A DNA stretch of 58,331 nt from Bacteroidia bacterium (lineage in GTDB: Bacteria > Bacteroidota > Bacteroidia > Bacteroidales > Marinilabiliaceae): the NCBI GenBank assembly GCA_030526155.1, contig JAUNDI010000010.1, forward strand, positions 1 through 58,331. Direction: 5' to 3'. A program made the translations under genes and the position numbers. The notes beneath the pieces were generated by a model, which saw only the letters and a list, made by a program, of their open reading frames with translations, searched no databases and was not told where the DNA came from. Every line of letters starts with the position of its first letter. Position 1 is the first letter of the stretch. Below, in pieces: positions 3,620 through 58,059 of the stretch.

Positions 3620-3674
3620 CGCTGCACAGCGTCTGGTCTCTGTCTGGTATAAGCGAGGTATAAGCGAGCACCCA
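3620..3674. repeat. 11-bp unit array, locus A
   Basis: Five consecutive degenerate 11-base units fill 3620-3674. The best are GTCTGGTATAA, then GCGAGGTATAA, then GCGAGCACCCA. It lies in the 376-base gap between the divergent GH43 gene and thrA; apart from this array and the thrA promoter I see nothing else there. This locus carries both unit types (GCGAGGTATAA and GAGCACCCA) found in the other arrays of the window. Confidence 0.6.
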
Positions 3675-3858
3675 AAGGAATTATTATAATAAGTGGGGAA
3701 TGATAATATTTTATGTGATTGGTGATTATACACTACCATTGCCAATTGTATATGACAAGAGAGGATGTTTGGCGGGTGAGGTAATATTTTCGTACGCGTA
3801 TTACGTAATTTGCTTTCGTATGAGTGGTTGGGCGGTGTTTTTGAGTATAAAATTGCAA

Positions 3859-3886
3859 TTTGGCGTTAAATAAATCACTATCTTTG
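3859..3886 (+). promoter_or_regulatory. thrA operon promoter
   Basis: TTTG at 3859-3862 and TATCTTTG at 3879-3886 match the Bacteroidota -33 and -7 boxes, though the N16 spacer is shorter than usual. Transcription would start near 3893, about 18 bases before the thrA ATG, leaving no room for an attenuator leader peptide. Confidence 0.55.
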
Positions 3887-3910
3887 CATGCAACAAAATA
3901 TACCTGAAAG

Positions 3911-6331
3911 ATGAATGTACTGAAATTTGGTGGCACCTCGATGGGTACTGCGAATAGCATGACCCAAGTTAAGCAGATTATTTTGAATCATGCGCAACCT
4001 GTTTGTGCGGTAGTTTCGGCTGTAAGTGGCGTAACGGATATGCTACTTAGGGCGGCTAGTATTGCGTCGAAGGGGGAGGATTACAAGCCCTTGTTTGAGG
4101 AGATTGTTGCTAAGCATCATAATATAACAGCCCAGCTATTTTTGCAACCAGAGAAGGTCAATGATGAGTTGGCTCCATTGTTTGAGAAACTTGATAGTAT
4201 GCTTCAAGGAGTGTGCTTGTTGAGAGAGTTGAGCACACGCAGTTTGGAGACCATTTCGGGTTATGGCGAGAGATTTTCGTCATTGATATTAGCGAGATTG
4301 ATACCAGGAGCTAATTTGATAGACAGTCAGGCATTAATCAAGACAGAACGCAGAGGTAGCAGAAACGAGGTTATAGAAGATTTGACCGATGCCAATATTA
4401 AAGGCATTTCGGACCAGATAAAGGGTGTAAATATATTCCCAGGCTTTATATCATCAGACGTTGATAATGAGCCAACTACACTTGGTAGAGGCGGATCGGA
4501 CTATACTGCGGCCATTTTTGCCTCGGCATTAGGAGCAGATGAGTTGGAGATATGGACAGACGTTGACGGCTTTATGTCGGCCGACCCAAGAATTATCTCT
4601 AGAGCCTATGTGCTTGACCATTTGACATATTCGGAAGCCATGGAGCTCTCGCACTTTGGCGCCAAGGTAATATATCCACCAACGATACTCCCAGCGTTAA
4701 AGAAGAATATACCTATTTATATAAAGAACACCTTTAACCCTACAGCCCCTGGCACACGTATTGACTCTGTAGAGAATAAGAGTTTGACTACGAAGATTAA
4801 AGGTATTTCTAGTATTCCTAATGTATCGCTTATTACAATACAATGTATTGCGATGGTAGGAGTATCAGGTATGTCTATGCGACTCTTTAGGGCATTGGCG
4901 CAGAAATATATCAATGTTATATTGATTTCTCAAGCCTCTTCGGAGAATACTATATCTATAGTAGTAGAGAAGAATGAGGCAGAGAGAGCTGCCCAGGTAA
5001 TCAACGAAGAGTTTGCGGATGAGATTGAGAAGTCGCACGCTACAGCGGTAAAGATAGACACCAATATGGCTGTAGTTGCCATTGTAGGTAATAGGATGCG
5101 CCATAATACTGGTGTGGCAGGTACACTTTTCAATGCTGTAGGTAAGAACGGTATTAATGTATATGCCATTGCGCAAGGCGCGAGTGAGGTAAATATCTCA
5201 TTTGTGGTAAAGCAAGAAGATTTGAAGAAGACCTTGAATGTAGTACACGACTCATTCTTCCTATCGCAATATAAAGTATTGCATATCTTCTTGGCTGGAG
5301 TAGGAACTGTAGGCGGTAAGTTGATTCAGAAATTGACTCAGCAAGCAGAGAAGCTACGCAATAATGACAAATTGATGGTAAGAGTTGCTGGAGTATGTAA
5401 CTCGAAGAATATGGTATTGAACCCACAAGGCCTTGATTTGTCGGACATTAAGTCGCTATTGCAAGAAGGTACCCCTACGACACCTAGAGACTTTGCGCAA
5501 GCCATAATAGACTTGAACTTAGCAAACTCTGTATTTGTAGACTGTACAGCATCGGCAGATGTAGCGGCGGTATACGATATGATGCTTGAGAACAACATTA
5601 ACGTTGTTACAGCCAATAAGATAGCCTCGTCATCGGCCTACGAGCACTATAAGAAGTTGAAGCAGACAGCCAAGGATAAGGGAGTACGCTTCCACTTTGA
5701 GACCAATGTAGGAGCTGCATTACCTATTATCTCTCCAATTAACGACTTGATAAAGAGTGGAGATAGGATATTGAAGTTAGAGGCTGTACTATCTGGTACT
5801 CTCAACTATATCTGTGGAGAGCTATCGGCAGAGAAGTCACTATCTGTAGTAATTGCGGAAGCCAAAGCAAAAGGATACTCAGAGCCAGACCCTAGAGTAG
5901 ACCTAAGCGGCACAGACGTTGCTCGTAAAATTTTGATATTAGCTCGAGAGTCGGGCTATGCCCTAGAGATGTCAGATATTGATAAGACGCCATTTGTACC
6001 ACAAGAGTATATGGATGTTGATTCGGTAGACACCTTTATGGAGAAGGTAAAAGAGCTAGATGCAGAATTTGAGGCTAGAAGAAAAGCCCTTGCAGACAAA
6101 GGATTGAAACTCAGATATGTAGCAACCTTTGAGGAGGGTAAAGCAAAGATAGGCTTCAAAGAGGTAGGAGAGGAAGACCCATTGTATCATCTTGATGCAT
6201 CTAATAATATTGTGTTGATATCATCTGATAATTATAAGCAACACCCTATGCAGATTAAAGGATATGGAGCTGGAGCAGATGTGACAGCATCCGGAGTATT
6301 TGCAGATATTATTAAAGTTGCGAACCTATAA
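3911..6331 (+). CDS. thrA: bifunctional aspartate kinase / homoserine dehydrogenase I
   Basis: This fused enzyme phosphorylates aspartate and reduces aspartate semialdehyde to homoserine, the first and third steps of the threonine and methionine branch. The 806-aa length fits the ThrA family. The N-terminal kinase opens with KFGGTSMG and carries the GRGGSDYTAAIFA and TDVDGFMSADP motifs. Two ACT-type regulatory segments follow (near 315-450), which in the family bind threonine. The dehydrogenase NAD(P) loop GVGTVGG lies at about 463-469, followed by TANKIA and LSGTLNYI motifs. It leads a compact operon with an apgM-like gene and thrC, with gaps of 36 and 18 bases. Feedback inhibition by threonine is family knowledge, not visible here. 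Confidence 0.96.
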   Translation: MNVLKFGGTSMGTANSMTQVKQIILNHAQPVCAVVSAVSGVTDMLLRAASIASKGEDYKPLFEEIVAKHHNITAQLFLQPEKVNDELAPLFEKLDSMLQGVCLLRELSTRSLETISGYGERFSSLILARLIPGANLIDSQALIKTERRGSRNEVIEDLTDANIKGISDQIKGVNIFPGFISSDVDNEPTTLGRGGSDYTAAIFASALGADELEIWTDVDGFMSADPRIISRAYVLDHLTYSEAMELSHFGAKVIYPPTILPALKKNIPIYIKNTFNPTAPGTRIDSVENKSLTTKIKGISSIPNVSLITIQCIAMVGVSGMSMRLFRALAQKYINVILISQASSENTISIVVEKNEAERAAQVINEEFADEIEKSHATAVKIDTNMAVVAIVGNRMRHNTGVAGTLFNAVGKNGINVYAIAQGASEVNISFVVKQEDLKKTLNVVHDSFFLSQYKVLHIFLAGVGTVGGKLIQKLTQQAEKLRNNDKLMVRVAGVCNSKNMVLNPQGLDLSDIKSLLQEGTPTTPRDFAQAIIDLNLANSVFVDCTASADVAAVYDMMLENNINVVTANKIASSSAYEHYKKLKQTAKDKGVRFHFETNVGAALPIISPINDLIKSGDRILKLEAVLSGTLNYICGELSAEKSLSVVIAEAKAKGYSEPDPRVDLSGTDVARKILILARESGYALEMSDIDKTPFVPQEYMDVDSVDTFMEKVKELDAEFEARRKALADKGLKLRYVATFEEGKAKIGFKEVGEEDPLYHLDASNNIVLISSDNYKQHPMQIKGYGAGADVTASGVFADIIKVANL

Positions 6332-6367
6332 TCTGAATAAGATATAATAAACATAGGCGATAATAAG

Positions 6368-57657: not shown

Positions 57658-57679
57658 ATTGTGCGAGTTATGGTGATTA

Positions 57680-57687
57680 CAAAAGTA
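57680..57687 (-). promoter_or_regulatory. -7 box of the ligA promoter
   Basis: TACTTTTG on the minus strand, 22 bases upstream of the ligA ATG. No clear -33 TTTG. Confidence 0.4.
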
Positions 57688-57768
57688 GTAATTGTTTGTG
57701 ATATATAGAGGGGGTGAGGGGATATTTGGATTATTTAGTATCGTAGTCCACCTTAAATATCTTTATTA

Positions 57769-57823
57769 TATCGTCCCTCATACCTGGCTTATACCTCGCT
57801 CTAACCTCGCTCTATACAGCCGC
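57769..57823. repeat. 11-bp unit array, locus I
   Basis: Five contiguous units in the opposite orientation to locus B. Examples are ATACCTGGCTT, then ATACCTCGCTC, then TAACCTCGCTC. Reversed, they read GAGCGAGGTTA and GAGCGAGGTAT, the same sequence type as loci A and B. It lies upstream of ligA. Confidence 0.65.
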
Positions 57824-58004
57824 TAGAAAGTCAATGATAAATTATATATCAAAATAAATTACAATTCCATAGATATGGTCTGTTGTCTTGTGCGTTACGG
57901 AGCCTTTTCATGAAAAGGCTCTACAGAGGTGGCTATCTCGTTTGTTTTGCTTGGTTGTATTGTATGGTAAATGTTATGATTTTTATATGTATGTTGCATT
58001 CTCT

Positions 58005-58059
58005 GACCACTCGGGCTGCACCCATAGTGCACCCAAAGAGCACCCATAGAAGTGTATGG
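58005..58059. repeat. 11-bp unit array, locus J
   Basis: Five contiguous units: GACCACTCGGG, CTGCACCCATA, GTGCACCCAAA, GAGCACCCATA and a weaker GAAGTGTATGG. Three of its units closely match, in reverse orientation, those of locus C. The gap from ligA to the IS-like end (57658-58203) holds loci I and J and a hairpin at 58113-58130. An open frame crossing locus J is probably not a gene. Confidence 0.7.

What the first reader, a model, noticed from the sequence alone, without database searches (positions are those of the whole stretch)
3620..58059. Dispersed intergenic arrays built from degenerate 11-bp units
Seven arrays (3620-3674, 11140-11183, 14235-14289, 24294-24337, 42221-42286, 57769-57823, 58005-58059) are made of contiguous units of exactly 11 bases. 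The fuller ones hold about four to six units, or 44-66 bp. Two unit types recur, GAGCACCCAWA and GCGAGGTWTAA, in both orientations, and locus A carries both. Two-unit fragments lie at 30393-30414 and 36029-36050. The unit length stays fixed while the bases drift, which suggests selection on spacing, such as near-helical phasing for a bound protein, or a shared mobile origin. They do not behave as terminators and encode no protein.
Basis: partly seen in the sequence, partly recalled or inferred. Interest (0 to 1): 0.72.

Follow-up and report, generated by a model that had tools for sequence, protein, structure and literature searches.

The report
Ordered 11-bp arrays between genes
Four closely related bacterial species carry many short arrays between their genes, built on an exact 11-base ruler in which mainly the first letters of each step and the order of the steps tend to be kept, which could be a landing strip for an unknown DNA-binding protein.

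Summary
All seven window arrays exist; models match 61 A-type and 69 B-type sites in this genome (E <= 0.01), mostly intergenic. The two types are one grammar: in one register, units begin CT[A/G], then GA[G/A], then optionally a terminal TT[G/C]NTCGYAR unit with a T-tract. In intergenic DNA the trinucleotide SWG recurs most often at 11 bp in all four species that share the arrays, clearly in two, weakly in two, and not in 11 other genomes of the genus. Neighbouring terminal units lie at multiples of 11 bp in 26 of 28 printed pairs. At one orthologous gap the first three bases of each unit match 25/27 among three species and the other eight 30/72; the window's own species differs there. Terminal units number 71 to 285 in these four genomes, 0 to 5 in 67 others of the family. 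No supported RNA structure, no clear gene-strand bias. Best reading: modular DNA sites for an unidentified protein reading a few base pairs per 11-bp step, spread by duplication. Main rival: a mobile or satellite-like repeat. Function is not shown.

The parts
3622..3676 (+). Array, five units CTG-CTG-CTG-GAG-GAG; the last unit is A-like (GAGCACCCAAA) after a B-like one, in the same register; divergent gap
   Evidence: model R2 hit C41:3612-3670; gap class
11142..11185 (+). B-type array, four units CTG-GAG-GAG-GAG; downstream of a tRNA gene
   Evidence: R2 hit; no array in the aligned stretch of G010 and G013, G008 gap not matched; tRNA 10935-11007
14235..14289 (-). A-type array CTA-CTG-GAA-GAG-GAA between a TATATACTTTTGC promoter-like box and the DUF445 gene
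   Evidence: R1 hit; present without indels in G008, gap about 87 bp shorter and empty in G010 and G013
24294..24359 (+). A-type array (ATG)-GAG-GAG-GAG plus terminal unit TTCATCGTAGA and T-tract
36029..36061 (+). Single GAG unit plus terminal unit TTGCTCGCAAT and T-tract, no array upstream
   Evidence: the genes abut in G008, G010, G013 (gap -1, 7, -1)
42199..42297 (+). Composite: terminal unit 42199-42209, T unit, five GAG units 42221-42275, terminal unit 42276-42286, T unit; terminal units 77 bp apart
   Evidence: arrays ending in the same unit lie next to the same upstream gene in G008, G010, G013 (in G010 only one flank is matched)
57776..57819 (-). B-type array CTG-GAG-GAG-CAG upstream of ligA
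58005..58059 (+). A-type array (GAC)-CTG-GTG-GAG-GAA

Best explanation
The arrays are modular DNA recognition sites, probably bound cooperatively by an unidentified protein or multi-domain complex that contacts one short core (CTR or GAR, often preceded by AG) per 11-bp step on one face of the double helix. Shown: an 11-bp lattice, an order CTR then GAR then TTS + T-tract, 3 to 6 units in 58 G000 arrays (longer composites in G010 and G013), strand-neutral placement between genes, and cores kept while the rest changes at one gap in three species. Inferred: that a protein reads the cores, that copies arise by local tandem duplication plus ectopic copying, and that the purpose is chromosome-wide (nucleoid or segregation type) rather than control of single genes; the 11 neighbouring window genes that I searched show no common theme.
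For: Lattice: SWG pair distances highest at 11 bp in the four species only; the longer core AGNSWG has 14 pairs at 11 bp in G000, 5 in G008, 2 in G010, 11 in G013 and 1 in the 11 other genomes; 26 of 28 same-strand neighbouring terminal units at multiples of 11 (printed rows, G010 and G013 only; p). Grammar: 83 of 92 arrays have at least three CTR/GAR units in one register against 257 of 2354 random segments; order CT-before-GA 54, reverse 1, tie 2, control 67, 61, 51; leaving out L252-L269, fetched with my own models, 39 to 1 by hand from that call. Register set by the terminal unit alone: CTR 27% and GAR 33% of the four preceding units at the right shift, at most 7% of either at any other; unit -1 is GAR in 35 of 53, unit -2 CTR in 31 of 53. 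Selective retention: 42221 gap, G008/G010/G013, positions 1-3 match 25/27, positions 4-11 30/72. Narrow unit number. At units -1 and 0 the same position in different loci is more alike (A 0.67, 0.89; B 0.67, 0.91) than neighbouring units of one array (A 0.55-0.84, B 0.53-0.76). No supported RNA structure; no clear gene-strand bias.
Against: No binding protein is known; RHH_1, the one class searched, has no match in the four drafts (86-97% complete). G000's own array at 42221 is GAG in all five units, so its cores differ from the CTG-CTG-GAR of the other three; it was left out of the 25/27 count. Its three pairs share data. At 14235 the contrast is in the right direction but not significant (14/15 against 29/40, p 0.15). 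Single sites are dispensable: empty at 14235 in G010/G013 and at L051 in G013. At L048/L072 two species carry arrays of opposite polarity in one gap, so these arose separately. The outer units do not show the excess (A -2: 0.50 against 0.55). The SWG signal is weak in G010 and G013, and the 11 other genomes have 8 AGNSWG pairs at 33 bp. G006, outside the four, has one clear 11-bp array. Many arrays were fetched by patterns or models of the arrays themselves.
Confidence: 0.4

Rival explanations
1. A mobile or satellite-like dispersed repeat family (in the manner of BOX or MITE elements): modules of several 11-mers, copied to new intergenic places and locally duplicated; order and period are inherited from the ancestor and nothing binds them.
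For: Whole ordered arrays recur with unrelated flanks; each species has its own variants (R2 matches: G000 69, G013 13, G010 10, G008 2; R1: G000 61, G008 37, G013 3, G010 0); occupied and empty sites; tandem higher-order copies of 55 to 88 bp; near-identical G013 copies differing by one unit (L258/L259); G000 and the other species differ in cores at 42221.
Against: Edges fade unit by unit rather than ending sharply, though alignment on the core favours that; no supported hairpin; no target duplication seen by eye at the empty sites; plain descent does not explain why three positions of eleven stay while eight go among G008, G010 and G013.
Confidence: 0.38
2. A DNA-mechanics element: phased deformable steps and T-tracts that wrap or bend DNA, for gyrase or an HU-type protein. 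The E. coli gyrase motif has two 47-bp regions of periodic G/C content (PMC12393610, a preprint, passages read), close to four or five units.
For: Length 44-66 bp, 11-bp period, T-tract end, TA step in 21 of 22 hand-picked unit types against 13.5 expected by letter shuffling; strand-neutral, intergenic.
Against: G/C clustering within the unit is no stronger than chance (combined p 0.13); a CTR/GAR order and the TTSNTCGYAR unit are not expected of pure bendability; an 11.0-bp step drifts out of phase with 10.5-bp B-DNA over 55-121 bp.
Confidence: 0.13
3. Ordinary simple-sequence repeats made by polymerase slippage, drifting neutrally.
For: A young near-perfect array exists (GTGCGTATGAC, six units with few changes, G008 L071); unit gain or loss of exactly 11 bp; 7-bp arrays occur in other genomes of the genus and some 7-bp hits in the four species too.
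Against: Ordered, non-identical units, narrow unit number and the same order at unlinked loci and in related species.
Confidence: 0.05
4. An RNA-level element: Rho loading site, 5'-UTR control element or terminator.
For: One strand is C-rich with regular spacing, as recalled for Rho sites; the 14235 array lies between a promoter-like box and a start codon; some arrays sit next to terminator-like hairpins (by eye).
Against: In co-directional gaps arrays point both ways (A 5 and 9, B 8 and 9; terminal units 5 and 4); 9 of 56 arrays lie in convergent gaps; no supported structure; no Rfam match but a tRNA in the window.
Confidence: 0.04

Closest known systems
GGGAATC / GGGGA(C/T)T heptamer arrays of Xanthomonas and Nostoc (PMC4692102, passages read)
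   Same: 186 and 183 arrays in two Xanthomonas genomes, largely intergenic, the majority with four units, heterogeneous units with some fixed positions, mostly between the same genes in both species with sequence and length variation
   Different: Unit 7 bp, one repeated motif, up to 26 units, G-rich with quadruplex propensity, nearer to the 5' gene; here 11 bp, ordered non-identical units and a terminal unit
TAACTGA repeats of Beggiatoaceae, Cyanobacteria and some Bacteroidetes (PMC4679880, abstract, introduction and passages read)
   Same: Short direct repeats, in one genome 169 sets of two to six copies, many intergenic, patchy in phylogeny, proposed protein-binding sites
   Different: 7 bp, invariant unit, in that genome mostly just upstream of start codons
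Long simple sequence repeats with 5-11 nt units (Mrazek 2007, known to me only through PMC4679880)
   Same: Unit length at the top of that range
   Different: Those are runs of like units for which slippage was proposed
BOX elements and other modular dispersed repeats (recalled, nothing read)
   Same: Modular, intergenic, variable number of internal modules, restricted to few species
   Different: No supported RNA structure found here; whole element counted in 11-bp steps
parC/ParR and parS/omega partition sites (PMC5016525, passages read; 11-bp unit of R1 parC recalled)
   Same: Tandem short units, one ParR dimer per unit; omega and ParG accept direct and inverted units
   Different: Those are plasmid centromeres of par systems; here scores of chromosomal sites, and no RHH_1 match

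Membership tests
Simple sequence repeats (LSSR, STRR) | Near-identical tandem units with open-ended copy number | tested here: not met
   Units are positionally distinct; 3-6 units in 58 G000 arrays
Simple sequence repeats (LSSR, STRR) | Fixed unit length | tested here: met
   11 bp; two of 28 terminal-unit spacings are 89 bp
Mobile dispersed repeat (MITE, REP, BOX) | Many copies at unrelated intergenic sites, occupied and empty alleles | tested here: met
Mobile dispersed repeat (MITE, REP, BOX) | Terminal inverted repeats, target duplication or a conserved hairpin | tested here: inconclusive
   No hairpin with covariation; no target duplication by eye; inverted terminal units flank the L258/L259 array and one further inverted pair was fetched (L301)
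Mobile dispersed repeat (MITE, REP, BOX) | A transposase that acts on it | not tested
   none searched for
ParR/omega-type partition site | Tandem short units with about one-helical-turn step | tested here: met
ParR/omega-type partition site | Cognate ribbon-helix-helix protein | tested here: not met
   PF01402: no match at E <= 0.001 in G000, G008, G010, G013, one each in G007 and G012; other RHH families not searched, drafts incomplete
Strong gyrase site | Periodic G/C content | tested here: inconclusive
   combined p 0.13 over 22 hand-picked unit types
Rho site or terminator | Acts on one strand of a transcript, so oriented with genes | tested here: not met
   no clear strand bias

The most novel reading that the evidence does not exclude
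A dedicated chromosome-wide nucleoprotein system arose in one small clade: an unknown protein family reads an ordered code of one trinucleotide per 11-bp step (CTR, CTR, GAR, GAR, TTS + T-tract) at scores to hundreds of intergenic sites per genome, with the intervening bases free to change.
Probability: 0.28. Interest if true: 0.87.

Novelty: new variant of a known kind. Interest (0 to 1): 0.63.

Why it matters
Dispersed intergenic repeats in bacteria are usually defined by a conserved sequence or a hairpin. Here what is kept is a ruler (11 bp), a short core per step and an order, while most bases turn over between related species. If a protein explains this, it would be a new way of marking a chromosome, and the terminal unit gives a handle to find the protein. 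If not, it is a clean case of a modular repeat family evolving on a strict lattice, useful for studying how such repeats are born and spread.

Tried and rejected
Two independent repeat types (rejected: one grammar). RNA structure (none, and four weak pairs without covariation). Rho or 5'-UTR element (no clear strand bias). Whole-array dyad symmetry (the best centre only reflects a local AG-N-CT core). G/C phasing (not significant). Ribbon-helix-helix protein (no RHH_1 match in the four species). Viral carriage (no exact match to two patterns). Named relatives: one exact pattern in genome contigs gave none; the Clp-type ATPase query gave only distant named genomes, so the organism is placed only as Bacteroidales by its nearest hits. 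Promoter reading of the terminal unit: it resembles the region upstream of one response-regulator-type gene in three species, but the arrays I looked at lack a matching -7 box (by eye). Paper searches: 45 and 66 returned no paper; one returned three, of which only PMC4692102 was opened (passages); none of the titles describes an 11-bp array family. One search was for ParR/parC, 67 and 74 for heptamer and simple repeats, 69 for gyrase. Subscription journals are mostly not held.

Limits and dropped rows. Searches scored only 150 candidates per genome, so counts may be low; they include the 29 training arrays each and some weak or partial matches. One search dropped arrays within 45 bp of a locus end and those inside called genes; its G010 and G013 rows include loci fetched with models R1 and R2, and L258/L259 and L268/L269 are near-copies. 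Without L252-L269, G010 alone is 1 for, 1 against, 1 tie; the one against (L206) reads GAR-CTR-CTR and fits a higher-order repeat. A few G000 rows come from L250 and L251, picked for their model matches. One search used only arrays with both unit classes. One search dropped terminal units inside called genes (6 of 35 clusters) or lacking a neighbour gene. In one search only the first rows of G010 and G013 were printed and none of G000 or G008, so the 28 spacings are those of the printed rows, counted by hand. Gap types were compared with intergenic length twice: no difference with G013 proportions (p 0.47), a difference with a small G000 sample (p 0.004). Some stretches used were chosen because they hold arrays. 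In one search (intergenic lag counts) G010 has only two 11-bp hits, as many as 7-bp ones.
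Full report
What was checked. The window is a whole contig (C41, 58,331 bp) of a 2.6-Mb draft genome, G000. It carries ordinary chromosomal genes: aspartate kinase-homoserine dehydrogenase, a Clp-type ATPase, topA, yidC, ftsK, feoB, ligA. The best named protein matches are Bacteroidales.

The arrays exist. All seven arrays are present and are contiguous 11-mers. In the genome the A pattern has 56 matches and the B pattern 50 at up to two mismatches, with none for the reversed patterns. 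Sequence-only models built from 29 A and 29 B arrays give 61 A and 69 B matches in G000 at E <= 0.01, training arrays and some weak matches included; only 150 candidates per genome were scored. The B model also gives 13 in G013, 10 in G010 and 2 in G008. The A model gives 37 in G008, 3 in G013 and 0 in G010. Neither gives any in the other 16 genomes searched.

Where they lie. Of 62 A and B arrays with context, 2 lie inside called genes, 4 lack a neighbour on one side, and 56 lie between two called genes: 31 co-directional, 16 divergent, 9 convergent. In the co-directional gaps 13 point with the genes and 18 against. The stretches examined are 85-93% coding, so the intergenic preference is strong. 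Gap types follow intergenic length when compared with G013 (p 0.47); against a small G000 sample divergent gaps are over-represented (p 0.004).

One grammar. Printing the arrays of the four species suggested a common register. One search tested it. For each array found by lag-11 identity, the register and strand with most CT[AG] or GA[AG] unit starts was taken without looking at order. Of 92 arrays, 83 had at least three such units (257 of 2354 random segments). CT units precede GA units in 54, follow them in 1 and tie in 2; in the control the counts are 67, 61 and 51. Several loci had been fetched with the models, one of which contains the order. By the printed labels, leaving L252-L269 out gives 39 against 1, of which G000 gives 29, G008 4, G010 1 (and the 1 against) and G013 5. 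A-type and B-type arrays are then the same thing: A reads CTGCACTCGGG GAGCACCCATA GTGCACCCAAA GAAGAC, B reads CTGTATAGAGC GAGGTATGAGC GAGGTATAAGG. The window array at 3622-3676 passes from B-like to A-like units without leaving the register.

The terminal unit. Many arrays end in TT[GC]NTCGYAR followed by T5-6 and often ATTTT. With the register set only by this unit, the four preceding units start with CTR in 27% and GAR in 33% of 212 unit positions (53 terminal units, a few of them from model-chosen loci). Every other register gives 7% or less for either class. Unit -1 is GAR in 35 of 53 and unit -2 is CTR in 31 of 53. The pattern TTSNTCGYARNTTTTT occurs 71, 118, 168 and 285 times in G000, G008, G010 and G013, and 0 to 5 times in 67 other genomes of the family, about as often as the reversed control. 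In the rows printed (part of G010 and G013), 28 pairs of neighbouring same-strand terminal units lie within 150 bp: 13 at 55, 1 at 66, 6 at 77, 5 at 88, 1 at 121 and 2 at 89 bp. Twenty-six of 28 are multiples of 11 (p 3e-25 if independent; tandem copies are not independent). Of 20 places then fetched, 19 show two or more same-strand terminal units with five to eight 11-mers from one to the next, and one (L301) an inverted pair.

The ruler without a repeat finder. Pair distances of SWG in intergenic DNA are highest at 11 bp in all four species: clearly in G000 (86; next 52 at 22) and G008 (103; next 85 at 33), weakly in G010 (63; next 56 at 20) and G013 (84; next 80 at 9). The core AGNSWG gives 14, 5, 2 and 11 pairs at 11 bp. 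Eleven other genomes of the genus show no peak at 11 bp for either (231 among 200 to 277; 1), but 8 AGNSWG pairs at 33 bp. Some stretches had been chosen because they hold arrays. Two other genomes of the genus, G002 and G004, show 7-bp arrays, 7-bp hits also occur in the four species, and G006 has one 11-bp array.

Comparison with related species. Of 27 gaps of at least 80 bp in the window and one further 20-kb stretch, 15 could be matched in G008: array in both 3, G000 only 1, G008 only 0, neither 11 (p 0.009). For G010 (20 matched) the figures are 1, 3, 0, 16 and for G013 (20 matched) 1, 3, 2, 14, neither significant. At 14235 G000 and G008 share an array aligned without indels while G010 and G013 have a gap about 87 bp shorter. 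At L051 G013 lacks a stretch of about 58 bp that holds the G000 array. At the L250 gap G000 has a B array, G008 an A-like array and G010 none. At L048/L072 the two species have arrays of opposite polarity, so they arose separately. Next to yidC (42221) all four species have an array ending in the terminal unit. Among G008, G010 and G013, anchored on that unit, positions 1-3 of three units match 25 of 27 and positions 4-11 match 30 of 72 (p 3e-6, three pairs that share data); G008 against G013 alone is 8/9 and 5/24. G000 was not in this count: its array there is GAG in all five units. At 14235 the contrast is 14/15 against 29/40 (p 0.15; all).

Other properties. Unit number in 58 G000 arrays is 3 to 6, 4 or 5 in 47. 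Information per unit falls off gradually from the centre (the two central units were used to find the arrays, so the peak is partly by selection). RNA folding gives no pairs for A and four weak pairs without covariation for B. G/C phasing within units is not significant; TA steps occur in 21 of 22 hand-picked unit types against 13.5 expected. Terminal units show no clear gene-strand bias: 5 with both genes, 4 against both, 11 divergent, 5 convergent of 25. No RHH_1 match in the four species. No exact match of two patterns in viral contigs.

Interpretation. Plain slippage does not give ordered, positionally distinct units at unlinked loci. Plain mobility gives order by descent, but not the selective retention of the first three positions seen at 42221 in three species. 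Constraint by something that reads a short core each 11 bp fits both, and mobility can have supplied the copies. I therefore slightly prefer a protein-bound modular site (0.40) to a dispersed mobile or satellite-like repeat (0.38). A DNA-wrapping site for gyrase or HU is possible: the E. coli gyrase motif has two 47-bp regions of periodic G/C (PMC12393610, passages).

What is known. The nearest published cases I found are heptamer arrays in Xanthomonas and Nostoc (PMC4692102, passages) and TAACTGA repeats (PMC4679880, abstract, introduction and passages). Both are 7-bp and not ordered in this way in what I read. Tandem sites of partition proteins (PMC5016525, passages) are the nearest in geometry. 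BOX elements, MITEs and the 11-bp unit of R1 parC are recalled, not looked up.

Noticed in passing
L155, L157, L173 (genomes G002 and G004): Other members of the genus show 7-bp degenerate tandem arrays (AATTGAA, TAAAGAG).
   Followed up: partly
L159 about 1411 (genome G006): One clear 11-bp array (TATGTTGTCGC-type units) in a genome outside the four species, without the terminal unit.
   Followed up: no
window 10855-11051 and its matches: A promoter plus tRNA segment (tRNA 10935-11007) has close matches in 13 of the 14 other genomes of the genus, with a conserved upstream A-rich region in the close ones.
   Followed up: no
L268 and L269 (G013:C47, about 93.1 and 59.2 kb): Two places about 34 kb apart share most of 170 printed bases including the array and terminal unit: a larger duplicated segment.
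   Followed up: no
L234 from about 12300 (G010), next to the array orthologous to window 42221: G010 has a reading frame there that looks to me like the recombination-promoting nuclease or transposase family (recalled, not searched); G008 and G013 have about 1.4 kb between the two flanking genes.
   Followed up: no
window 30400-30440: AGAGCGAGGTATTGAA is conserved with its surroundings in G010 and G013 although no array is present: possibly a single ancestral unit or an unrelated conserved site.
   Followed up: partly
L205 3638, L207 637, L209 (G013, G010, G008): The terminal-unit motif TTGGTCGCAATTTTTTT occurs without an array at the same place upstream of what looks like a response-regulator gene in three species, reversed relative to a TATACCTTTGC promoter-like box (by eye).
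   Followed up: partly
window 14302-14325 and 51176-51197: Two further 11-bp tandem runs reported by Tandem Repeats Finder that do not fit the grammar; the second lies inside the feoB reading frame.
   Followed up: no
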